NCBI GenBank assembly: GCA_029213195.1
Contig: JARGNI010000024.1
Location: 1-64,000, forward strand
Origin: Verrucomicrobiales bacterium
GTDB lineage: Bacteria > Verrucomicrobiota > Verrucomicrobiia > Verrucomicrobiales > DEV007
Direction: 5' to 3'
Length of the DNA stretch: 64,000 nt
Both the position numbers and the translations under genes were made by a program. Below, piece after piece: positions 36,013 to 47,101 of the stretch. Every line of letters starts with the position of its first letter. Within the stretch, counting starts at the first letter, position 1. Below the pieces are notes generated by a model. That model was not told the origin of the DNA. It made no database searches and saw nothing but the letters and a program-made list of their open reading frames with translations.

Positions 36013-36774
36013 CTACTTTCCTCGCTTCAGCTCTCGAAACTGGGTCGGAGAAAATCCCGTCGCCGACCGGAAGGCTCGCGTAAAGGCGCTGTGATCACTG
36101 AACCCACAGGCCATGGCGATTTCGGAGACGGTTTCCTCGGTATCCTCGAGCAGTCGGGTGGCCGCCTTGATCCTCGTCCGGGTGATGTATTGAGAGGGCG
36201 TCAACCCGAAGACCCGCTTGGTCACGCGCGCAAATCGATGGGCGGACATTTGCGAACGCTCCGCCAGTTGCGAAGGAGAGACCCTTTCTCCAGGATCCGC
36301 CTCGAATTCGTCGAGCACGAGAGCCATGGGAGCGGGAATCGTATCGATCGGGATGGGATCGCGAAGGTCTCGGGAAAACCCGACCAGCCCGACGATTTTC
36401 CCCTTCTCATTCCGAAGCGGAAACTTCGAGGTGAGACACCAACAGGGTTCATGGGGTCGCAGCCACTGGATCTCGAGGTGATTGTGGAACGAGGCGCCAT
36501 CGATCAGCACCTTGGAATCCTGCCTCGTCGGCACCTCCCCCATCGAACCCGGAAACACATCGATCGGACGCTTGCCGATCAGATCGCTCTTCCGCGAAAA
36601 GCCATGCCTCTCCACAAGGGATTGATTGACGAAAAGATAATACCCTTCCGAATCCTTGACGAAAAACGCCAGATCCTCGGCTTCATCGAAGAGAGACTCG
36701 AGAATAGGAAGCCGAAGCAGCCATTCCCCATCCTGCTGAAGAAGGTCGGCGGCTTTGCGGATGGATTCACTCAT
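36013..36774 (-). CDS. AraC-type regulator with N-terminal PAS domain
   Basis: 253 residues from the ATG at 36774; the open frame upstream is the shadow of the divergent gene. Residues 30-125 form a PAS domain (EDLAFFVKDSEGYYLFVNQS, HGFSRKSDLIGKRPIDVFPG, LRNEKGKIVGLVGFSRDLRD). The C-terminal 90 residues are an AraC DNA-binding domain (LAERSQMSAHRFARVTKRVF, GLTPSQYITRTRIKAATRLL, IAMACGFSDHSAFTRAFRSA). A family of such PAS-AraC proteins is common in verrucomicrobia. The PAS domain would bind a small ligand. The start is 84 bases from the divergent gene at 36859, an obvious candidate target. Confidence 0.92.
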   Translation of the reverse strand: MSESIRKAADLLQQDGEWLLRLPILESLFDEAEDLAFFVKDSEGYYLFVNQSLVERHGFSRKSDLIGKRPIDVFPGSMGEVPTRQDSKVLIDGASFHNHLEIQWLRPHEPCWCLTSKFPLRNEKGKIVGLVGFSRDLRDPIPIDTIPAPMALVLDEFEADPGERVSPSQLAERSQMSAHRFARVTKRVFGLTPSQYITRTRIKAATRLLEDTEETVSEIAMACGFSDHSAFTRAFRSATGFSPTQFRELKRGK

Positions 36775-36858
36775 AGCCCGGGTATCGATTTCATCAATGA
36801 TCTCGCAAATCGAATCAATTTCGGCGAGATCTCTACTCTTGCTAATCTGCTCCTGCTC

Positions 36859-37440
36859 ATGAAGAAATCCACGCTCATTCTCCTCATCGTCGTCGTCGCA
36901 GTCTGCACCCTTATCCCGATCGCGTTCAAGCTCCTCCTGATCGGCTTTCATTCGACCGGGGATGCCACCGAAAATCTGGAGTTGTGGGGCGGGTATCAAC
37001 CCGAAACCGAATATGTCCTAGTCCGCGATGTCTTTCTCCAGGGAACTTCGGCCGATATGGCAGGCAGACGACTCGTCCTTGTGCCCGAGGGAGAATCCGG
37101 TCTCGGGATTCGATTTGAATCTGCTCCCGAGACGGTGGCCGCCTTTCGGGAAGACCCCGAGCAGGCAGTGAAGGATGCGGGGCTCTGGTTTCAGAAAGTT
37201 CACGGAATTGTGGAGAAGGGAACGAAACTCCGAACCATGAAGCTGGAACATCACCAAGGTTGGAGCGCTTTTTTTGGAAGTGTCCAGACCCTGACTCCCT
37301 ACGCCGAAATCCTCGATGGAGAATTCGCAGGAAAGAAGGTCGATCTCTCGGATGTTTCGTGGTTTTTCGGAAAGAAAGAAGACTTCGGAGTGATTCGTTA
37401 CAAGCCGGAAGAGAAATTGCTTCAGGCCATAAAGCCCTGA
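36859..37440 (+). CDS. Membrane-anchored hypothetical protein
   Basis: 193 residues from the ATG at 36859. One hydrophobic N-terminal segment (KKSTLILLIVVVAVCTLIPI) is followed by a soluble outer part that I do not recognise. It contains YQPETEYVLVRDVFLQGTSA, RRLVLVPEGESGLGIRFESA and WFQKVHGIVEKGTKLRTMKL. The small beta-rich pieces suggest a single folded periplasmic domain. It is divergent from the PAS-AraC gene and convergent with the metallo-hydrolase gene, 6 bases apart. Regulation by the AraC protein is likely from position but not shown. Confidence 0.75.
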   Translation: MKKSTLILLIVVVAVCTLIPIAFKLLLIGFHSTGDATENLELWGGYQPETEYVLVRDVFLQGTSADMAGRRLVLVPEGESGLGIRFESAPETVAAFREDPEQAVKDAGLWFQKVHGIVEKGTKLRTMKLEHHQGWSAFFGSVQTLTPYAEILDGEFAGKKVDLSDVSWFFGKKEDFGVIRYKPEEKLLQAIKP

Positions 37441-37446
37441 CCGCGC

Positions 37447-38304
37447 CTACCCGAAGGCAAATTCAGCCCCCAACGGCAACACCACCGAAGTCGCCCCCGT
37501 CTTCTCGATCGCTTCGACGAACTGCGGGAGCGCAACCCCCGGCAGACAACGCGGCTCTTTCTCATATCCCCGGAAGAACCAGTCCCAGTGACAGGGGATC
37601 ACGAATCGTGGTCGGAGCAACTCGATTGCCTTCCTGACATAGTCGGGGCGAGATTGCCACCCCACCGCGCAGAGACACAGGACGTCGACTTCGATCCCGG
37701 CGAGTTCTTCCTCCACGAAATCCGCCGAGTCGATGTGCATGATGCGGATGCCTCCCATCGTGACGAGCCAGTCGAGGACCAGCCCATGACGCAGCTTGGT
37801 AAATCGCACCGGCCACTCCGAGAGTTCGGGGATATCGCCCGGAAGTGGAACCCTCCCCATCACTTTCCCATGGAAAGAGGCAAAGCCACGCACCGTTGTC
37901 GTTTCGCCGCAGGCAATATCTTCTCCGCCGGAAGTGGCGATGAGTTGCTCCTCGGGCAGTCCGGCAGCTCGACCGACCACGCGAGTCGAATGAGACCCGA
38001 TGAGTCGGGCGCCGGTTTGATGACACAACTCGGGAGCGTCGAGAATATGATCGTGATGAGAATGCCCGATGAGAACCTCATCGGCGCGAGGGATCGCTCT
38101 TCGAATCAATTCCGAGTCCGAGTCCAGTTTGCAAAAGAGCGTCTTGAGGATGCCGGGACGAGTCAGGAAAGGATCCAAAACGACTACCCTTTCCTCAGTC
38201 TTGAGAACGAAGCCGGCTGTCCCGAGGTACTCGATCGTGACCTTCCCGTCCACTGGCGCTTCTCTAGAATAATAGAGGGAAGGATCGACACAAGAGAGAA
38301 ACAT
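37447..38304 (-). CDS. Metallo-beta-lactamase-fold hydrolase
   Basis: 285 residues. The metal motif is HSHHDH (in VLIGHSHHDHILDAPEL). Further ligands are likely in the FASFHG stretch, in MHIDSADFV and in VIPCHWDW. The layout, with TIEYLGTAGFVLKTEERVVV at the start, fits the UlaG/L-ascorbate-lactonase-like side of the superfamily. No signal peptide is clear; the first 18 residues before the domain are not typical and a later start is possible. The substrate is unknown. The next gene upstream is rhombosortase, 66 bases away. Confidence 0.85.
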   Translation of the reverse strand: MFLSCVDPSLYYSREAPVDGKVTIEYLGTAGFVLKTEERVVVLDPFLTRPGILKTLFCKLDSDSELIRRAIPRADEVLIGHSHHDHILDAPELCHQTGARLIGSHSTRVVGRAAGLPEEQLIATSGGEDIACGETTTVRGFASFHGKVMGRVPLPGDIPELSEWPVRFTKLRHGLVLDWLVTMGGIRIMHIDSADFVEEELAGIEVDVLCLCAVGWQSRPDYVRKAIELLRPRFVIPCHWDWFFRGYEKEPRCLPGVALPQFVEAIEKTGATSVVLPLGAEFAFG

Positions 38305-38370
38305 GGAGAACGGGGTTTTCAGTAGAAACGTCTCATCAACTCCGTCTCTTGGAAAAATCCGAAAACCTCC

Positions 38371-39030
38371 TCAGCTCAGCTCCCTGAGCACGGCAGGCTC
38401 CTCCGCGATTCTGGAACGCCCGACCCGATGGCCGGACCAGGCAGAGGGTCGCTTGACGAGTCCTGCGAAAAGTCCGCAGACCAACCCAACCACATGAGCC
38501 GAAGTCACAGGAATGAATTCCTGGTTGGTCCGATCGACAAAAAACGTGTCACCCGTGGTCCATTCGAAGAGGGTCTTTGCGAGAATTCCGACCAGACCAG
38601 AAATCGCCAACCATCGCCCTGCGCCCTTTCTCTGCCACAATCCTGCCAGGACCAATCCAAAGAGCGCCGAGTCCACTCCCGAAAGTCCCCGATAGGTCGC
38701 AAACTCCGGACGAAACCAGGCGATCTCGATTGGAATCGCGAGAGCCGAGAGAAGCAAACACAGCAGCACTCGACCGGGGAGAATGCGGATGGCCGCATCG
38801 CCCAACCCGACCAAAGCCGCGACATCCCAGAGAAGGTGATCCCACGACCAGTGGGTGAGATGGCCCGTCAAGGCGGTCAGTCCGCTCTGCGGAAAGGAGA
38901 GCGAACGCTGCCATTGCAGTACCTCCCCGATCGCGGGGAAGCACTGAATGAAGATGGAAAGCAACGCCAGGCTGCCGATCACGACCCCGCTGACAAGAGG
39001 GGTCGAAGGGAGGTCCACTCGAGTTTTCAT
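38371..39030 (-). CDS. rrtA: Rhombosortase (rhomboid-family intramembrane serine protease)
   Basis: 219 residues with about six membrane segments. The catalytic serine motif is GLSG (115-118, in YRGLSGVDSALFG) and the catalytic histidine is His179 in SAHVVGL. The early stretch LTALTGHLTHWSWDHLLWDV is the mark of the rhombosortase group. Rhombosortases cut proteins that carry a C-terminal GlyGly-CTERM signal and help to anchor or release them. Such a protein is encoded just upstream on the same strand (VIT/VWA, ending at 39054), and the two genes are 23 bases apart. The pair is therefore probably an enzyme with a dedicated substrate. The C-terminal 30 residues are basic and soluble. Confidence 0.88.
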   Translation of the reverse strand: MKTRVDLPSTPLVSGVVIGSLALLSIFIQCFPAIGEVLQWQRSLSFPQSGLTALTGHLTHWSWDHLLWDVAALVGLGDAAIRILPGRVLLCLLLSALAIPIEIAWFRPEFATYRGLSGVDSALFGLVLAGLWQRKGAGRWLAISGLVGILAKTLFEWTTGDTFFVDRTNQEFIPVTSAHVVGLVCGLFAGLVKRPSAWSGHRVGRSRIAEEPAVLRELS

Positions 39031-39053
39031 GGCGCTGCCAGTGTCTTGAGAAA

Positions 39054-41090
39054 CTACGCGTCCTTGCGAATCCCCAACTTGGCCGCAAGTCCCGAGAAGA
39101 GCAGCAGGAGAACCACAGCGAAAGGAGGCAGAGCACCGCCGCCTCCGCCACCACCGGAAATCCGGGGAGCATTGCCGGGAGTGAATGGCTTCGCTTTATC
39201 GACTCGATAGGAAGTCGGAGTCGGAGCCGCTGCCCGAGCCGATTGCGCCGCATTTTCCCGAGCGACCCGATCCCGGTTCTTTCGGGAAATCCCGTGACGC
39301 TCGAAGGCGTCGTCCGCAAGAACCAACATGGCCGTTTCATCCGTCACGAGCTGGTATTCGAGACCGAGGTCGCGGATCGCATCTTCCGACTCACGCACGG
39401 GCATTTCGCCCTGGTTGGCACGGAGCTCGATCTGCTCGATCTGGTCCAGAGCCCAGAGGCGTTCGATCTCAGGATTGGCCGTATCGACGTCCGGGAATTC
39501 GAACTCGGTGTGATAGGTCTTGTCCTCACCCGTGAGCCGGGCTTCCAGGGTCAGCTCGGCCTTCCCTCCTTTTTCATACTGACCAAACATGACCAGCTGT
39601 TCGCCCCGATAGATCTTGCCCGGCAGTTTTCCGGATACGTTGAAGGTCTTCACTCCCTTGATCGAGAACTCGGCGTCGTGCAGCGACTCGTGAACGATCT
39701 TGCTCTTCGCCTGGAGAATCTGCCCCATGATGTCGTCGGCATTGGAGACTCCCGCATAGAATCCTCCACTGCCTTCGCAGACCGTGCGCATCAGCGGCCA
39801 GTTGGCACTGTTGCCGAGAAGAAATCCAAAAATCCGGATGTCGTGCTGCTTGGTCAACTCGTGAAACTTTACAGGATCGACGATCCCCCGGTTGGTCACG
39901 CCGTCCGTCACAAGCACCACGCTGGTCGCCCGGTCATCATCAAGTTTCTTCATCGCGAGGTCGAGCCCAGCGTAGATGTCCGTGCCGCCGTTCGTCCGCA
40001 GTCCCTGGATTTTCTTCACCGTCTTCTCAACATTTTCCGGAGTGGCCGTGACCCATCCTCCGGTAAAATCTCTCGCACTGTCGGAGAAGGTAACGACTCG
40101 AAAGCGGTCCTTCGGCGACATGTTGCCGATAACCCGGGTGACCCCGTCGGTGAGGGTATGAATCTTCGAAGCCATGCTTCCCGACGTGTCGAGGACATAG
40201 ACGTAGTCCGCCCCATTCTCGATCGGCTTGAGATCGATCCCCGGAGTCACGACCATCATGAAGGTCCCTTCCTTGGCTCCCTCTTCCCGGAACGGAACGA
40301 CCTCGACTCGCCCCGGCAGATCCTGCGCGAGTCGGTAGTAGACGACGAGATCCTGATTCAACGCCTGTCCCTGTTTCTCGAGAAGCATCCGGTAGTGACC
40401 GTCCTGCAGTTTCTCCGTCGTCGTCTCGTTCTCAAACCCAGGGATGCGAACCTGCTCGATCGGCCAGGCTGATTTCAGGATGACTTCGGCCGAGAAATTT
40501 CCTTCCACAGCATCGTGGACCGGATTCCAGAAGCTGAAGGCTGCCGGGTCGTCGGTGCCCCCTTCTTCGAGCGGATAAAGATACCGCCCGATCCCGGTAT
40601 CGATGGGAACCGGCTGGTAGTAGACGACGCGGATCCGAGTTTCGTCGTGAGCCTTCACCGGATGAACCCGAAACTCGAAGGCCTTGAAGCTATCCTTCGT
40701 CGCGAGACCGACATCGCTGCCTGCCTTTTTCTCACTCTCATAGATCGTCTGCGCTTTCTGGCGTTCGACGACTTCGCCGTGAATGTCGCGCTCCCCCATG
40801 GTGAGCGTGACTTCCGAGAGACTGGCGCTCTTCGGAAGAGGACAGCGATACACAGCCTCCAGGTCGATATCGTTGGGATTGTAAAAGGTCTGGAGGACCT
40901 CCGTCTTCGCGAAGCCATTGTTGATCGTGACTTTCACGTGATGATCGCGAATCGCGATCGGGGCATGCGGCGATCCTTTCGGAGTCAGCGTGCCGGCGGC
41001 AAAGGCGCCTGAGGTGGTAATGACGAGAGCAGCGGTCGCTGCGACAGCAATTGCTGCGGGTTTCGTGATGAAGCGATGGAATGTTTTCAT
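39054..41090 (-). CDS. VIT and von Willebrand A domain surface protein with GlyGly-CTERM-like tail
   Basis: 678 residues from the ATG at 41090. Signal peptide 1-31. The VIT domain is about 45-165 (VKVTINNGFAKTEVLQTFYN, ERQKAQTIYESEKKAGSDV). The VWA domain starts near 296 and has a full metal-ion site: DTSGS (301-305), a threonine in TNGGTDIY and VLVTDGVTNRG. The end has a Pro/Ala linker, then ISGGGGGGG, a hydrophobic run FAVVLLLLFSGLAAKLG and the basic end IRKDA, the layout of a GlyGly-CTERM sorting signal. VIT/VWA proteins of this kind are known as targets of a marine sortase; here the adjacent processing enzyme is a rhombosortase. It would be displayed on or released from the outer surface. 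Confidence 0.9.
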   Translation of the reverse strand: MKTFHRFITKPAAIAVAATAALVITTSGAFAAGTLTPKGSPHAPIAIRDHHVKVTINNGFAKTEVLQTFYNPNDIDLEAVYRCPLPKSASLSEVTLTMGERDIHGEVVERQKAQTIYESEKKAGSDVGLATKDSFKAFEFRVHPVKAHDETRIRVVYYQPVPIDTGIGRYLYPLEEGGTDDPAAFSFWNPVHDAVEGNFSAEVILKSAWPIEQVRIPGFENETTTEKLQDGHYRMLLEKQGQALNQDLVVYYRLAQDLPGRVEVVPFREEGAKEGTFMMVVTPGIDLKPIENGADYVYVLDTSGSMASKIHTLTDGVTRVIGNMSPKDRFRVVTFSDSARDFTGGWVTATPENVEKTVKKIQGLRTNGGTDIYAGLDLAMKKLDDDRATSVVLVTDGVTNRGIVDPVKFHELTKQHDIRIFGFLLGNSANWPLMRTVCEGSGGFYAGVSNADDIMGQILQAKSKIVHESLHDAEFSIKGVKTFNVSGKLPGKIYRGEQLVMFGQYEKGGKAELTLEARLTGEDKTYHTEFEFPDVDTANPEIERLWALDQIEQIELRANQGEMPVRESEDAIRDLGLEYQLVTDETAMLVLADDAFERHGISRKNRDRVARENAAQSARAAAPTPTSYRVDKAKPFTPGNAPRISGGGGGGGALPPFAVVLLLLFSGLAAKLGIRKDA

Positions 41091-41125
41091 AACCCTGAAA
41101 ACATGACCCGCTTCCAAACATTTAC

Positions 41126-41158
41126 TAAATCGATATAATTTTTCTTACCATCGATTTA
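41126..41158 (-). promoter_or_regulatory. Inverted repeat and possible promoter of the VIT/VWA gene
   Basis: TAAATCGAT (41126-41134) and ATCGATTTA (41150-41158) form a perfect 9-bp inverted repeat with a 15-base spacer, 36 bases before the VIT/VWA ATG. On the minus strand a TTTAAA and a TATATC lie 17 bases apart and overlap the two arms. A repressor or activator that binds the repeat would cover the promoter. The surrounding 80 bases are AT-rich compared with the genes. Confidence 0.5.
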
Positions 41159-41202
41159 AATGATTCTATATCTACCGAGCTTTGAGCTTTCCACACCGCT
41201 GT

Positions 41203-42696
41203 CTAAGCCAGGATGGAGTCGAGCACCTTGGCATGTTCGACACCGGTCAATCGTTGGTTGAGTCCGCGAAACTTGAAGGTGAACCGCTCGTGATCGATCC
41301 CGAGAAGATGAAGGATGGTCGCATTGAGATCGCGAATATGAACCGGATCTCTGGCGATGTTGTAGGCGTAGTCATCGGTTTCGCCGTAGTCGAAGCCAGC
41401 CTTGGTGCCACCTCCTGCCATCCAGGTCGTGAAACAGCGGCCGTGGTGATCCCGACCCGAGGTGGGTGCCCCGAACAGTCCCTGGCTGTAGACCGTTCGA
41501 CCAAACTCCCCTCCCCAGATCACGAGGGTATCCTCGAGCATTCCGAGCCGTTTCAAATCCTTCACCAACGCGGCCGATCCCTGGTCCACATCCTGACACT
41601 GTCTCGGCAGTTGATTGCGGATGGAGATATGCTGATCCCATCCACGGTGAAAAAGCTGGATGAATCGGACCCCTCGTTCCGCCATGCGTCGGGCCATGAG
41701 ACAGTTGGCCGCGAAGGTTCCCGGACGCCGTGCCTCTTCTCCATACAGCTCAAAGGTCGACTCGGGTTCATCGGAAAGATCGGTCAGGTCGGGCACCGAG
41801 GTCTGCATGCGATACGCCATCTCATAGGCCTCGACCCGAGCGAGGGTCTCGGGATCTCCCGCCTCCTCGGAATAGCGACGATTCAGATCCCCGAGGGTAT
41901 CGAGCAATCGACGACGGGCATCGGAGGAGACACCCGGAGGATTCTTCAGATAGAGAACGGGATTCGCCCCCGGGCGGAGCATGACTCCTTGATGGCTCGA
42001 AGGCAGGTAACCGCTCCCCCAGAGGCGGGAGAAAAGCGGCTGACCGGGATTCTTTCCTGTACCCTGGCTGAGCAGGACCATGTAGGCGGGAAAATTGTCA
42101 TTCTCTCTTCCGAGACCATAGCTGAGCCAGGCACCCATGGACGCATGCCCCATCTGCTGGGAACCGGTGTTGATGTAGGTGACCCCTGGATCGTGATTGA
42201 TCGCTTCGGTCCACATCGACCGAATGATCGTCATGTCATCGGCGATCCCTTGGATATGCGGAAGAGGGTTCCCGATCCAGGTCCCGTGATCGCCACACCG
42301 CTTCCCGCCCCAGAGTGGCTTCACCACCGGGAAACTCGCCTGCCGCGCTGTCATCCCTGTGAGCCGCTGTTCTCCGCGCACCGAGGCCGGGAGATCAGAC
42401 CCGTGGAACCGATCGAGGGACTCCTTGTGATCGAAAAGATCGACGTGACTCGGGCCGCCCGACTGAAACAGGTAGATGACCCGCTTCGCTTTGGCGGCGA
42501 AGTGAGGCAATCCCGGAAGCCCTTCGCCAGAGCCTGCTTCGCGCAGGGGAGAAACGGCACCCTGGGAGTCTGCAGCCATCATCTGCCCCAAGGCGAGACC
42601 GCCCAACCCGGCCGCGCCGCGACCGAGAAGCGATCGCCGAGTCATGGCCTGGCGTTGTTGTTCGTCAAGAGTATCCAGCAACGAGATGCGTTTCAT
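41203..42696 (-). CDS. DUF1501 family secreted protein (cluster 2)
   Basis: 497 residues. It begins [20 protein letters not shown], then [20 protein letters not shown], again a twin-arginine-like export signal. Family marks are [55 protein letters not shown] and [20 protein letters not shown]. It is closer in length and motifs to the cluster 1 DUF1501 protein than to the one at 58643. It is the last gene of the tight cluster 2 operon, 6 bases after the sulfatase. Confidence 0.92.
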
Positions 42697-42702
42697 AAAA
42701 GG

Positions 42703-44022
42703 TCAGGGTTGGGGAAAGGTTTGCAGGAGAAGAGAACGAAACCGTTCGACCCGTTCGGACTCCTCGTCCGCGAGGTTGGTTTCTTCGTCAGGATCGGAAG
42801 GCAGGTGAAACAGCTGAACGGGAACCCGATCCCACTCCTGCACCGTCCGATAGCGAGTCGTGTCACTGCCCTCGTGGCGAAGGAGAAATTTCCAATCCCC
42901 CTCTCGAAGCCAGCTGTATTGGAGGGTCTCGAACGGCTTCCCCGGTGTCATGTTGTGAATCGAGTACGCAGCTCCCGCGACTCGCTCCCGTTTCTCACGG
43001 GTCAGATCAATACCGGGCAGGCCCTCCGGCGGATCCAACCCACAGAGGGAAACAATCGTCGGGAAAAGATCGAGGGAACTGGCGAAGGTTTCCGGTCGAC
43101 TCGGCTCGATCTTTCCTTTCCACGAAAAGAAGATCGGGGTCCGAACCCCCAACTCGTAGGGAGAACCCTTCGACTTGGGAGCGAAGCCGGGCCACCACCC
43201 CTTCGGCAGCGGGATCTTCGAATCCGCAGCGGCGAGCCAGCCGTTGTCACACACGCAGAAGATGAGGGTATTTTCCCGAATCCCGCGTCGATCGAGGGAG
43301 GCGAGCAATTCCCCACAAGTGGCATCGAACCACTCGCACATCGCGAAATACCGAGCCGTCGCCTTGCTGAGTCCTTTGTCCTCGTAGGGCTCCAGGAACC
43401 GGGCCGGAGGATTGTGGGGCGTGTGGGGAAGAAACGGAGCATACCAGAGAAAGAACGGCTTCTCTTCTTCCGCCGCCGTATCGAGAAACGCATCGATCTG
43501 CGCCATCCCCTTGCGTCCGATCGCGAGACCGGCGTCGCCATGTCGTCCCCCTTTCGAAGCATCTCCGTGGGTCATTCCATGGGTAAACCCTCCGTCCTTC
43601 CAGGAGCCTTCCCACCATTTCCCGGACTGGAAAGCGAGATACCCTCGCTCGGTGAGGAACCGGATGAGACTGGGGTGGGAATGAAATGCTTCTCGGACTG
43701 GGCGATCCTCACGGTCACGTTCTGCCCTCTTCGCAGGACTGACATCATTCCCAACGACTCCATGTCGATGAGGAGGCAACCCGGTAACGATCGATGCCAG
43801 AGAAGGCCGACACAGCGGCGAGACCACGTAGCCCTTCTCGAACAGCAGCGACTCCTTGGCCAACTGATCGAGATGAGGAGTGCGAACCACCTCGTGCCCC
43901 ATGAATCCATAATCCGTCCATCCCTGGTCATCGGAGAGAATCAGAACCACATTGGGGCGATCTTCCGCTGCCGTGGCGGGCGAAAGGATCAGGGCCAGGA
44001 AAACCAACAAGAGCGCTCTCAT
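42703..44022 (-). CDS. Secreted sulfatase with CRPSL motif (cluster 2)
   Basis: 439 residues, shorter than the other sulfatases here. Signal peptide 1-19. The metal site is RPNVVLILSDDQGWTDYGFM. The active-site motif is CRPSL (71-75, in VSPLCRPSLASIVTGLPPHR), with leucine in place of the usual arginine that supports the formylglycine. This CRPSL variant is seen in a number of planctomycete-type sulfatases, so the enzyme may still be active, but its chemistry is less certain. AFQSGKWWEGSW replaces the common GKWHLG. VCDNGWLAA and GVRTPIFFSW follow. It is one base after PSD1 and six bases before DUF1501. Confidence 0.88.
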   Translation of the reverse strand: MRALLLVFLALILSPATAAEDRPNVVLILSDDQGWTDYGFMGHEVVRTPHLDQLAKESLLFEKGYVVSPLCRPSLASIVTGLPPHRHGVVGNDVSPAKRAERDREDRPVREAFHSHPSLIRFLTERGYLAFQSGKWWEGSWKDGGFTHGMTHGDASKGGRHGDAGLAIGRKGMAQIDAFLDTAAEEEKPFFLWYAPFLPHTPHNPPARFLEPYEDKGLSKATARYFAMCEWFDATCGELLASLDRRGIRENTLIFCVCDNGWLAAADSKIPLPKGWWPGFAPKSKGSPYELGVRTPIFFSWKGKIEPSRPETFASSLDLFPTIVSLCGLDPPEGLPGIDLTREKRERVAGAAYSIHNMTPGKPFETLQYSWLREGDWKFLLRHEGSDTTRYRTVQEWDRVPVQLFHLPSDPDEETNLADEESERVERFRSLLLQTFPQP

Positions 44023-44023
44023 A

Positions 44024-47000
44024 TCAGTGCCTCGTCAGGGTTTCACTCAGGTTGAAAAGCAAGGCGGAAACCTGCGTCCACGCCGCGAGATCGACCACGG
44101 GAAGGGTTTCGTCCAAGGGGGCTTCGCCGACGGCAACGGCCAGGGCAGCTGCCTCGCGGTCCTGCTCGAAACGAGAAAACTCATCCGTCAGGAAGGAGGA
44201 CAGGGCATTGATCTCGGCGTCGGCTGGAAGTCGTCCCGTGATCTTTTCGAAGGCGATCTGCAAACGCTGCCGCTCATCGCCATCGCCGGACTCCTGGAGC
44301 AAGTTCTCAGCAAAGACCCGAGCGGCTTCGGCGAACTGTGGATCATTCAGCGTCACCAACGCCTGCAGCGGAGTATTGGTCACCCCTCGTTCCGTGATGC
44401 ACATCTCTCGGTTGGGAGCATCGAAAGCGGCCATGCTGGGATGGGGACTCGTTCGCTTCACGATGGTGTAGAGACTGCGTCGATAGAGTTTCTCTCCTCG
44501 ATCCTGAACAAAGACCTGCTTCGTCGCCGGAGTGCTACCGAAGTGACTCACCTCTTTCCAGAGACCAGGAGGTTGATAGGGCTGCACACTGGGACCTCCG
44601 ATTCTCGGAACGAGGAGACCACTGAGCGAGAGCGCCTGGTCACGGACAAATTCTGCCGCGAGACGGAAACGAGGACCTCGGGCGAGTAGCTCATTGTCAG
44701 GATCTCGCTCCAACTCTTCGGGAGTGGCCTCGGAGCTCTGGCGATAGGTAGCGCTGCTCACGATCTTTCGAATCAGTTCTTTCTGATCCCATCCACTTTC
44801 CACGAACTCCACCGCCAACCAATCGATCAGGTCCGGATGCGACGGCCACGATCCCTGCGAACCAAAATCGGCGGTCGTCGTCACGATTCCCTGACCGAAA
44901 AACAACGCCCAGATTCGATTCACCGCGACTCGCGCCGTCAAGGGGTGATCGGGTTGCGTCATCCAGCGGGCCAGGTCCAACCGCGTCGCTTTCTCTTCCG
45001 CCTGCAACGGAGGGAGAATCTTCGGTGTCGTTGAATAAACTTTCTCGGTGGGCGCATCGTACTGCCCCCGATCGAGAATGAAGGTCTCTCTCGGCTTGGG
45101 CGCGGCATCCATCACGAGCGCGGAATGTTTCTTTGTCAGGACGTCTATTCGCTCCTCGAGGTTCGCGATCCGAATCCGGGCTCTCTCGAGGGAAGGAGCC
45201 TCTTCCCGAAAGGCGGCCAGGACTTGCTCACGTTCCTGCTCTGTCCAATCCGATTCCGTTTTTCGCAGGATCTCCGACAGGTCGGAAGCAAACCGGCTAT
45301 CGGTGTCATTCCCCTGGAAGGCTTCGATGCGCCACTGAAATGGAAGCGACGCCGGGCGCCCATAGAACACCATCGCAGTCAGGTAGGGGGTTTCTTCCGG
45401 AACGATGGGGTCCGCAAAAGTGATCGTCAGATGCGGGTTCTCATCCCCGGACTCCGGCTGCCACCAATGGAGATTCCGTTCATCAAGAACATGAGCCGGC
45501 GAGTTCCCCTCTCCCGTCGAACTCGCGGTCGCCTGGTCGATCACCGATTGGTTGTAGAACTCGACCTGCTTCGCGGCCTGTTTCCCCGCCGAAACCAAAA
45601 CCGTGGTCACCTTCGGGACTCCATCCGGGTGAGGCGTCAATTTCCCGCTCTCGGAATCGGGAACGAAATGAATCCGGATACCATGGACGGCGTCGACCTC
45701 CGGCAACTTCAAGGCATGACTAAAGGCATTGAGACCTTTCCCTGGTTGCGTCACGACGACGGCACCATCCTCCGCGATTTCGTAGGGCCCCGGACGGTTC
45801 GGACTGGAGGCATCGAGCGTTTCCATTCGTTGGAGGGAAAACCCTTCGCCACGATTTCGTTCTTCCTCCTGCACCTCGGCAAGCCACTCGGCAAACCCGT
45901 CCCGGGTCTCCTCGAGATAGGACCGCAATGACGCAAGTTCCTGCCTCACCTCGTCCAACTCACCATCGGGAATCACGGTATGCGCCAGGATGCTCGGCTT
46001 CGCATTCACCCCTGCATTTCCATCGAGTCCCCGATCGCTCAGCTCGTTGAAGAAGGAAAAGAACTCGTAGTATTCGCGAATCGAAATGGGATCGTACTTG
46101 TGATCGTGACATTGAGCGCAGGCCATGGTCAGACCGAGAAAAACCTCGCTGGTCGTTTTCACTCGATCCGCAGCATAGTTCGTCAGGTTCTCGGCCGGGA
46201 TCGTTCCGCCCTCGTGAGTGATCATGTGGTTCCGGTTGAATCCCGTCGCCACGATCTGCGCTGGAGTCGCCTCGGGGAGAAGATCTCCCGCGATCTGTTC
46301 GATCGTGAACTGATCGAAGGATTTGTTCTCGTTGTAGGCCTGGATGACCCAGTCCCGCCACAGCCACATGTCCCGCCCCCCGTCGATCGAATAGCCATTG
46401 GTGTCCGCATACCGGGACTGATCGAGCCATGGCACCGCCATCCGCTCGCCAAAATGGGGTGAGGCCAACAAGCGATCCACCGTCGCAGCCCAGGTCGACT
46501 CGGCGTCCTGCTGATACTCCGAAACAAATTTCCTGACTTCCTCCCGAGTCGGAGGCAAACCGGTCAGGTCGAAGGTCAGTCGCCGGATCAGGGTGCGGGG
46601 ATCGGCTTCCTCCGACGGCTTCATCTCCTCCTCCCTGAGGCGTTCGAGAACAAAGGTATCGATCGGATTCTTCATCCAATCCGAAGTGATCCGTGGGAGC
46701 AAGGGACGCTGGGGCGTCTCAAAAGCCCAGTGGCCTTCATACTCGGCGCCTTCTTCGATCCAGCGTTTCAGAGTCTTTTTCTGCGCTTCGGTCAGCACGA
46801 GGTGGGACTTCGGAGGCGGCATCAACTCATCCGGATCGTCGGAAACAATCCGGAGCCAGGCTTCACTCTCTTCCGCGTTTCCCGGAAGAATGGCCTGATA
46901 CCCCCCGAGATCCGCAAGCGCTCCCTCGAGGGTATTGAGCCGAAGATCTGCCTTCCGTCCGTGTTCGTCGGGTCCATGGCAGTGAAAACAGGTTTCCGAG

Positions 47001-47101
47001 AGAATCGGACGAACGTCTCGGTTGAACTGAATCGTTTCGGTCCGAGCCAGGGAGGGCCCCAAAACGAGAAGCGGGATGAGAGGGAAAAGAGTCGACTTCA
47101 T
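44024..47101 (-). CDS. PSD1 protein: cytochrome-like domain plus DUF1549 and DUF1553 (cluster 2)
   Basis: 1025 residues. Signal peptide 1-20. The c-type haem site is CFHCH (in LSETCFHCHGPDEHG), followed by LMPPPKSHLVLTEAQKKTLK. DUF1549 has LTGLPPTREEVRKFV and HFGERMAVPWLDQSRYADTN, then ACAQCHDHKYDPISIREYY as a second cysteine pair. DUF1553 has HPLTARVAVNRIWALFFGQG, FGSQGSWPSHPDLIDWLAVE and GVTNTPLQALVTLNDPQFAE. The middle insert differs from cluster 1: it is longer and includes VVVTQPGKGLNAFSHALKLP. The start ATG overlaps the stop of the gene before in an ATGA, so translation is coupled. Electron transfer is inferred from the haem motifs. Confidence 0.92.
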   Translation of the reverse strand: MKSTLFPLIPLLVLGPSLARTETIQFNRDVRPILSETCFHCHGPDEHGRKADLRLNTLEGALADLGGYQAILPGNAEESEAWLRIVSDDPDELMPPPKSHLVLTEAQKKTLKRWIEEGAEYEGHWAFETPQRPLLPRITSDWMKNPIDTFVLERLREEEMKPSEEADPRTLIRRLTFDLTGLPPTREEVRKFVSEYQQDAESTWAATVDRLLASPHFGERMAVPWLDQSRYADTNGYSIDGGRDMWLWRDWVIQAYNENKSFDQFTIEQIAGDLLPEATPAQIVATGFNRNHMITHEGGTIPAENLTNYAADRVKTTSEVFLGLTMACAQCHDHKYDPISIREYYEFFSFFNELSDRGLDGNAGVNAKPSILAHTVIPDGELDEVRQELASLRSYLEETRDGFAEWLAEVQEEERNRGEGFSLQRMETLDASSPNRPGPYEIAEDGAVVVTQPGKGLNAFSHALKLPEVDAVHGIRIHFVPDSESGKLTPHPDGVPKVTTVLVSAGKQAAKQVEFYNQSVIDQATASSTGEGNSPAHVLDERNLHWWQPESGDENPHLTITFADPIVPEETPYLTAMVFYGRPASLPFQWRIEAFQGNDTDSRFASDLSEILRKTESDWTEQEREQVLAAFREEAPSLERARIRIANLEERIDVLTKKHSALVMDAAPKPRETFILDRGQYDAPTEKVYSTTPKILPPLQAEEKATRLDLARWMTQPDHPLTARVAVNRIWALFFGQGIVTTTADFGSQGSWPSHPDLIDWLAVEFVESGWDQKELIRKIVSSATYRQSSEATPEELERDPDNELLARGPRFRLAAEFVRDQALSLSGLLVPRIGGPSVQPYQPPGLWKEVSHFGSTPATKQVFVQDRGEKLYRRSLYTIVKRTSPHPSMAAFDAPNREMCITERGVTNTPLQALVTLNDPQFAEAARVFAENLLQESGDGDERQRLQIAFEKITGRLPADAEINALSSFLTDEFSRFEQDREAAALAVAVGEAPLDETLPVVDLAAWTQVSALLFNLSETLTRH

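What the first reader, a model, noticed from the sequence alone, without database searches (positions are those of the whole stretch)
38371..41090. Rhombosortase next to a single VIT/VWA protein with GlyGly-CTERM-like tail
The enzyme and its probable only substrate are neighbours, 23 bases apart. VIT/VWA proteins of this kind are better known as partners of a marine sortase. Here a membrane-embedded serine protease seems to have taken that place. The VWA metal site is intact, so the surface protein may bind a ligand or form filaments.
Basis: partly seen in the sequence, partly recalled or inferred. Interest (0 to 1): 0.7.

Follow-up and report, generated by a model that had tools for sequence, protein, structure and literature searches.

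The report
Dedicated rhombosortase with one VIT/VWA target
A bacterium of the Verrucomicrobia carries a two-gene unit in which a membrane-embedded protease sits next to the one surface-type protein whose tail it probably cuts; this kind of pair was described in 2011, but here it belongs to a distinct branch in which the enzyme, its partner and the partner's tail motif stay together across many species.

Summary
Window 38371-39030(-) encodes a rhombosortase (TIGR03902, 92.2 bits, cut-off 84). Exactly 23 bases upstream, 39054-41090(-) encodes a VIT/VWA protein with a signal-peptide-like start, an intact MIDAS and a tail of seven Gly, a helix and basic residues.

Dedication is well supported. The draft genome has one rhombosortase above cut-off, and three tail models find no other C-terminal Gly tail. 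In a 387-genome phylum sample, 29 of 31 VIT/VWA genes scoring over 400 bits lie within 0.9 kb of a rhombosortase; the other two end at contig edges. Thirteen lower-scoring VIT/VWA proteins show neither tail nor neighbouring enzyme.

It is not a new kind. Haft and Varghese (2011) reported dedicated adjacent pairs, and VIT/VWA proteins with GlyGly, LPXTG or PEP tails. The variation is in the details: curated models miss the tail, and the enzyme lacks the His said to mark the family. In relatives, nine genomes have two rhombosortases beside different substrate families. Cleavage, lipid attachment and surface location are inferred, not shown.

The parts
38371..39030 (-). rhombosortase (rhomboid-family intramembrane serine protease), 219 aa
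   Evidence: TIGR03902 92.2 bits > 84; GlpG fold, best Foldseek E 3.2e-05, TM-score by target 0.67
38680..38682 (-). codon of catalytic Ser117 in YRGLSGVDSALFG (Ser, not His, at Ser+4)
   Evidence: invariant Ser in 47 of 47 paired enzymes
38494..38496 (-). codon of catalytic His179 (SAHVVG)
   Evidence: invariant in 47 of 47 paired enzymes
39031..39053 (-). 23-base gap between the two genes
39054..41090 (-). VIT/VWA protein with C-terminal sorting tail, 678 aa (ATG at 41090; an in-frame TTG lies at 41117)
   Evidence: Pfam VIT 6e-27, VWA_2 2e-14; start shared with relatives
40998..41090 (-). signal peptide region (MKTFHRF...AFAAG; read by eye, not predicted by a dedicated program)
   Evidence: sequence; AG after it is invariant in 17 aligned sequences
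40620..40949 (-). VIT domain
   Evidence: Pfam PF08487
39756..40202 (-). VWA domain with intact MIDAS (DTSGSM, T370, D396)
   Evidence: Pfam PF13768/PF13519; conservation
39057..39155 (-). sorting tail: seven Gly, hydrophobic helix (predicted 656-677), basic end

Best explanation
A dedicated one-enzyme-one-substrate C-terminal sorting unit. The VIT/VWA protein is exported by its signal peptide and folds outside the inner membrane while its C-terminal helix stays in that membrane (inferred from sequence). The neighbouring rhombosortase, using Ser117/His179, cuts at or beside the Gly-rich stretch before GA[LIVMF] (inferred from the family). By analogy with Vibrio cholerae VesB, the new C-terminus is then probably joined to an ethanolamine-containing lipid and the protein is delivered to the cell surface through a type II-like secretin (both inferred). 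There the intact VWA site can bind a metal-dependent ligand (inferred). Shown here: the pair, its order, its co-inheritance, the conservation of tail and active site, and the absence of another recognisable tail in the draft genome.
For: Enzyme over the family cut-off with a GlpG fold and invariant Ser/His. One rhombosortase over cut-off in the genome; tail searches find only this tail. In 56 related genomes (42 of them at least 90% complete) the orthologous VIT/VWA gene (65-100% identity) and a rhombosortase of 80 bits or more occur in the same 5 genomes and are adjacent in all 5. In the 387-genome phylum sample 31 genomes have a VIT/VWA match over 400 bits: 29 have a rhombosortase within 0.9 kb, G227 is split over two contig ends, G220 is a contig-end fragment. 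27 of 61 fetched phylum rhombosortase loci have a VIT/VWA gene within 6 kb, in all 27 upstream on the same strand (the gap is unreliable for L183, whose ORF start is overextended). 13 lower-scoring VIT/VWA proteins lack both the tail and a neighbouring enzyme. Enzymes of the non-gammaproteobacterial VIT/VWA pairs with GGGA tails fall on one side of a branch of the enzyme tree (35 rows, support 99), 34 with the partner beside them and the 35th at a contig end. Three relatives of the genus share flanking genes with each other, but the window shares only these two genes with them. Surface delivery, T2SS need and a modification consistent with glycerophosphoethanolamine are experimental for VesB (PMC6219818, passages).
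Against: No cleavage, lipid or localisation data for this lineage were found. TIGR03501 does not recognise the tail. The His at Ser+4 that the 2011 paper calls a mark of virtually all rhombosortases is Ser here. Secretins matching the GspD model occur in all 31 genomes searched (two of them carry the pair), none over the GspD cut-off, so T2SS involvement is compatible but not discriminated. Two gammaproteobacterial relatives (L040, L042) have a Gly tail but their rhombosortase lies elsewhere, so adjacency is not universal. The genome is a draft (95.4% complete, 115 contigs), so a further substrate could be missed.
Confidence: 0.75

Rival explanations
1. Release, not anchoring: the rhombosortase simply sheds the VIT/VWA ectodomain from the inner membrane into periplasm or medium, possibly on a signal, and no lipid is attached.
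For: The 2011 authors propose regulated release as one option (PMC3237569 Discussion); [quoted passage not shown]
Against: For VesB, rhombosortase cleavage leads to cell-surface retention. Nothing tested here separates the two.
Confidence: 0.17
2. Not dedicated: the enzyme also processes other proteins whose tails differ too much to be found by the models used.
For: Several substrates per genome are common in Vibrio and Shewanella (PMC3237569 Table 1); tail models are short and insensitive; genome 95.4% complete.
Against: Three tail searches found no second C-terminal Gly tail; adjacency marks single-target genomes in the 2011 survey; enzyme clades follow the partner.
Confidence: 0.15
3. Stable membrane-anchored VIT/VWA protein; the adjacent rhomboid is inactive or acts on something else, and adjacency is co-regulation.
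For: No direct cleavage data; the residue that stacks on the catalytic His in GlpG (Tyr205) is Ser here.
Against: Catalytic Ser and His invariant in 47 of 47; of the lower-scoring VIT/VWA proteins without a tail, 0 of 13 have an enzyme beside them, while those with a tail do.
Confidence: 0.06
4. Chance adjacency or annotation artefact.
For: None.
Against: Same order in 29 of 31 genomes of the phylum sample and in Phycisphaerae and gammaproteobacterial loci.
Confidence: 0.01

Closest known systems
GlyGly-CTERM / rhombosortase dedicated pairs (Haft and Varghese 2011, PMC3237569)
   Same: Rhombosortase over TIGR03902 cut-off next to its single tail-bearing target; [quoted passage not shown]
   Different: Tail missed by TIGR03501 and under the TIGR03867 cut-off; Ser instead of His at catalytic Ser+4; the larger survey here shows a distinct VIT/VWA-linked enzyme clade.
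VesB / RssP of Vibrio cholerae (PMC6219818)
   Same: Tripartite C-terminal tail, rhomboid-family enzyme, exported substrate.
   Different: Several substrates for one enzyme; substrate is a protease. The RssP sequence was not compared here.
Marine proteobacterial sortase target (TIGR03788) with its dedicated sortase
   Same: VIT/VWA substrate beside a dedicated C-terminal sorting enzyme.
   Different: Score 207.7 against cut-off 551.65; no LPXTG motif in the tail; the enzyme is a rhomboid protease, not a sortase.
Inter-alpha-trypsin inhibitor heavy chains (ITIH1, ITIH4)
   Same: Same VIT-VWA architecture along most of the protein: PDB 6fpy Foldseek E 2.7e-33 over 597 columns; 9c4f by sequence profile E 8.5e-47.
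   Different: Animal plasma proteins. That their C-terminus is cut and then linked to a glycan is recalled, not tested; at most an analogy.
Rhombotarget lipoprotein (TIGR04179) pairs
   Same: Another substrate family found beside a different rhombosortase clade in the same phylum.
   Different: Unrelated substrate, different tail and catalytic-loop motif.

Membership tests
Rhombosortase (TIGR03902) | Model score over curated cut-off | tested here: met
   92.2 bits against 84
Rhombosortase (TIGR03902) | Rhomboid fold with catalytic Ser and His | tested here: met
   GlpG fold; Ser117 and His179 invariant in 47 of 47 paired enzymes
Rhombosortase (TIGR03902) | His at catalytic Ser+4 (2011 SIMBAL mark) | tested here: not met
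   Ser121; non-His in 38 of 47 pairs and in 34 of 34 phylum enzymes without a VIT/VWA neighbour; present in 29 of 29 top-scoring gammaproteobacterial enzymes that could be read, of 30, so a mark of part of the family
Rhombosortase (TIGR03902) | WRxxS/T motif before the first His segment | tested here: not met
   Window reads LTALTGHLTH at that place; only the Thr (T55) is kept (by eye)
Rhombosortase (TIGR03902) | Cleaves a GlyGly-CTERM tail | not testable with these tools
   Needs an experiment
GlyGly-CTERM (TIGR03501) | Tripartite tail: Gly motif, one helix, basic end, at the extreme C-terminus, no Cys in the motif | tested here: met
   Sequence; helix 656-677 in the model
GlyGly-CTERM (TIGR03501) | Model score over cut-off | tested here: not met
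   No match at E<=10; window not among own-genome hits; TIGR03867 13.8 bits, cut-off 19.7
GlyGly-CTERM (TIGR03501) | Signal peptide at the N-terminus | tested here: inconclusive
   Present by eye (MKTFHRF...AFAAG); no signal-peptide predictor was run
Marine sortase target (TIGR03788) | Model score over cut-off | tested here: not met
   207.7 against 551.65
Marine sortase target (TIGR03788) | LPXTG tail and adjacent sortase | tested here: not met
   Tail has no LPXTG; the neighbours are a rhomboid and a DUF1501 gene
VIT/VWA (ITIH-like) proteins | VIT and VWA domains with intact MIDAS in one chain | tested here: met

The most novel reading that the evidence does not exclude
In Verrucomicrobiota, rhombosortases have split into several insulated one-enzyme-one-substrate lanes that run side by side in one cell. 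Each enzyme clade sits by its own substrate family with its own tail motif: VIT/VWA with GGGA[LIVMF] and mostly loop YRGLSGxD[STCM]; VIT/VWA with GPVG and loop GLSGxxHG; a matrixin-type protein with GGG[AS]PSx[WA]F and mostly loop GLSA[VL]NLGL; rhombotarget lipoprotein with PGY[TSI]G and loop GLSG[LV]xxG. The residues after the catalytic serine would then be part of a specificity code that keeps the lanes apart. The window holds the VIT/VWA lane alone.
Probability: 0.45. Interest if true: 0.6.

Novelty: new member of a known kind. Interest (0 to 1): 0.36.

Why it matters
Rhombosortases are known mainly as one enzyme serving many substrates, and how they recognise a tail is open. Natural one-to-one pairs, and genomes that seem to keep two or three such pairs apart, give ready-made sets for finding which residues of enzyme and tail decide recognition. 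The VIT/VWA pair also shows the animal ITIH-type architecture handled by a bacterial C-terminal sorting enzyme outside Proteobacteria.

Tried and rejected
Tail-loop covariation as independent evidence: across 47 pairs the tail type matches the Ser+4 residue without exception (38 of 38 GGGA with non-His, 9 of 9 GPVG with His), but on the VIT/VWA tree (46 rows) this is one change only, one independent pair, so it cannot be counted as repeated co-evolution. The tail classes were also defined after seeing the tails. Outside adjacent pairs, L040 has a GGGGGALDL tail in a genome whose best rhombosortase is of the His type, and L042's best rhombosortase has Tyr at Ser+4.

Second substrates in the own genome: the hits of TIGR03501, tail model A3 and tail model A6 other than the window (10 loci read; two also) were internal helices, other reading frames or N-termini. 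One of them (L258) is a hydrophobic-basic end of an open frame, but it has no Gly motif and lies opposite a longer ORF. None is a C-terminal Gly tail. The second rhomboid match of the genome (C101, 41.7 bits, below cut-off) is a longer protein, 428 aa.

T2SS as a discriminating partner: secretins matching GspD are in 31 of 31 genomes searched, none over cut-off, so this says nothing about the pair. No sigma-70-type promoter match was found in 38200-41300. Plasmid records gave only distant VIT/VWA relatives, all 20 under 60% identity. An earlier count of gammaproteobacterial loops rested on 16 of 30 loci, one of them wrongly extracted; redid it.
Full report
What is there. On the minus strand, 39054-41090 encodes a 678-aa protein with VIT (6e-27) and VWA (2e-14) domains, and 23 bases downstream 38371-39030 encodes a 219-aa rhomboid-family protein over the rhombosortase cut-off (92.2 against 84 bits). 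The ORF list starts the first gene at a TTG at 41117, but the ATG at 41090 is the start shared with relatives. The protein begins with a signal-peptide-like stretch (by eye), keeps the MIDAS residues D301, S303, S305, T370 and D396 (positions assigned from recalled knowledge of VWA domains) and ends in seven glycines, a hydrophobic helix and basic residues. The Gly run uses mixed codons, and in four genus members the tail is as conserved as the core (0.82 and 0.82 mean identity) and more than the linker (0.70); in all six pairwise comparisons synonymous codon differences in it outnumber replacements. AlphaFold2 gives the enzyme a GlpG fold (mean pLDDT 86; best PDB match 2o7l E 3.2e-05), and the partner (mean pLDDT 79) the VIT-VWA architecture of ITIH1 (6fpy E 2.7e-33 over 597 columns) with a terminal helix at 656-677.

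Is the enzyme dedicated? The window's genome (5.9 Mb, 95.4% complete, 115 contigs) has one rhombosortase over cut-off; the next match, 41.7 bits, is a longer protein. TIGR03501 finds no tail over cut-off anywhere in it, and misses the window's tail too. A model from five orthologous tails and one from 27 diverse tails both find the window's tail (5.8e-19, 1.8e-9) and nothing else that is a C-terminal Gly tail (hits read).

Do the two genes belong together? Among 56 related genomes (42 at least 90% complete), seven have a TIGR03902 match at E<=1e-12. Five of these have 80 bits or more; the other two (54 and 50 bits) are well under the cut-off, and at that threshold three of the 14 control genomes also ring, none over cut-off. 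Six genomes have a VIT/VWA match at E<=1e-40: the same five, plus G023 at 25% identity, whose protein has no Gly tail and which has no rhombosortase match. In the five the genes are adjacent in the same order. A scan of named genomes gave 18 loci, of which one matches over 168 residues only (L046) and one is cut before the tail (L041). In a 387-genome phylum sample 31 genomes have a VIT/VWA match over 400 bits; 29 have a rhombosortase within 0.9 kb, including two divergent ones that the first threshold had missed, G227 has the two genes at two contig ends, and G220 is a contig-end fragment. Thirteen further VIT/VWA proteins at 290-343 bits end without a Gly tail or terminal hydrophobic stretch (by eye) and have no rhombosortase in the flanks read (the enzyme model used there was built from the GGGA lane and could miss distant ones). 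Seen from the enzyme side, 27 of 61 fetched phylum loci have a VIT/VWA gene within 6 kb, always upstream on the same strand. In the genus, three relatives share flanking genes with each other but only these two genes with the window in the 15-19 kb read, so the pair is kept while its place changes. In G050, of another family, a DUF1501 gene about 5 kb from the pair is 40% identical to the window's neighbour, but this is a common gene family.

How it most likely works. Shown by sequence: export signal, VIT-VWA body, removable tail, membrane protease with complete catalytic dyad, consistent pairing. Inferred from the family: cleavage at the Gly stretch. Inferred from VesB of V. cholerae, where rhombosortase cleavage, a C-terminal modification consistent with glycerophosphoethanolamine, and T2SS-dependent surface display were reported (PMC6219818, passages read; also PMC13393428, passages): attachment to a lipid and surface delivery. 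Secretins matching the GspD model exist in the own genome and in all 31 genomes searched, none over cut-off, so they do not discriminate. A ligand for the VWA site is possible; filaments are not supported by anything found here.

What is known. A 2017 paper names three further tail or target models (PMC5300114, passages). I saw no later paper on the VIT/VWA pair in the listings of the searches (the library lacks most subscription journals).

Where it departs. The curated tail models do not catch this tail. The 2011 paper gives His at catalytic Ser+4 as the mark of virtually all rhombosortases; the window has Ser, and 38 of 47 pairs have S, C, T, N or M there. Among gammaproteobacterial enzymes, the 30 highest-scoring have no VIT/VWA gene in flanks of up to 1.5 kb, and 29 of 29 that could be read have His; of 19 lower-scoring ones, 4 have a VIT/VWA neighbour and Asn, and 10 of the other 15 have His. 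In the phylum, 34 of 34 enzymes without a VIT/VWA neighbour also lack His (one of them, L198, aligns poorly), so the absence of His is not special to the VIT/VWA lane. The tail motif GGGA[LIVMF] goes with non-His loops in 38 of 38 pairs and GPVG tails with His in 9 of 9, but on the tree this is a single split and so is not independent proof of co-evolution.

Side result: parallel lanes. The enzyme tree of 109 rows (short search, 186 columns) separates by partner: a GGGA VIT/VWA group (35 rows, support 99), a GPVG VIT/VWA group (8 rows, 100), a gammaproteobacterial VIT/VWA group (4 rows, 99), a group of 14 (100) in which 11 have a neighbour with a GGG[AS]PSx[WA]F-type tail, and a group of 17 (93, not starred) in which 12 have a neighbour of the rhombotarget-lipoprotein family by BLAST (two of the latter confirmed by TIGR04179 and two of the former by the matrixin model). 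In the group of 14 no target was found for L145, L154 and L171, and for L153 the target gene is convergent, not upstream. In the group of 17 none was found for L152, L167 and L187, the lipoprotein ORF beside L172 does not end in the usual tail, and L141 and L150 stand in tandem with an enzyme of the other type beside a matrixin-type gene. Twelve of the 51 phylum genomes with a match carry two or three rhombosortases; in nine of these (G135, G148, G182, G215, G229, G241, G329, G385, G412) two enzymes have different target families beside them, in eight of the nine with both tails recognisable (not G182). The 2011 survey knew one genome with two rhombosortases. This is the most novel reading, and it rests on neighbourhoods, not on cleavage.

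Verdict. Real, well conserved and functional-looking, but a new member of a published kind. Interest lies in its distinct branch and in the parallel lanes of its relatives.

Noticed in passing
L143/L153 (G148), L146/L159 (G412), L147/L168 (G385), L148/L169 (G241), L156/L170 (G229), L173/L174 (G329), L165/L180 (G135), L163/L175 (G215), L164/L172 (G182): Nine genomes of the same phylum carry two or more rhombosortases, two of them beside different target families with their own tail motifs (in G182 one tail is not recognisable).
   Followed up: partly
L180:6576-8036, L157:3078-5891, L160:4305-5771 and others: Matrixin-type (Pfam M10 in L180 and L157) proteins with a GGGGGAPSLWF-like tail upstream of rhombosortases with the loop GLSA[VL]NLGL; the NCBIfam scan of L180, L160 and L157 gave no match over cut-off.
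   Followed up: partly
L232-L244: A second VIT/VWA group (290-343 bits) without C-terminal tail, many ending in a similar soluble stretch (YFxLL...LG); no rhombosortase found nearby.
   Followed up: partly
L141:5956-7268 and L150:5431-7221: Two rhombosortases of different loop types in tandem beside a matrixin-type gene.
   Followed up: no
L185:6587-8842: VIT/VWA gene interrupted by a stop codon in one draft genome, with the rhombosortase ORF beside it open.
   Followed up: no
window 41203-47101: DUF1501, sulfatase and PSCyt1/PSCyt2/PSD1 genes upstream of the pair on the same strand, a common planctomycete/verrucomicrobial cluster (commonness is recalled).
   Followed up: no
window 36013-36999: PAS plus AraC-type regulator near, but not next to, the pair; a metallo-beta-lactamase-fold gene (37447-38304) lies between.
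   Followed up: no
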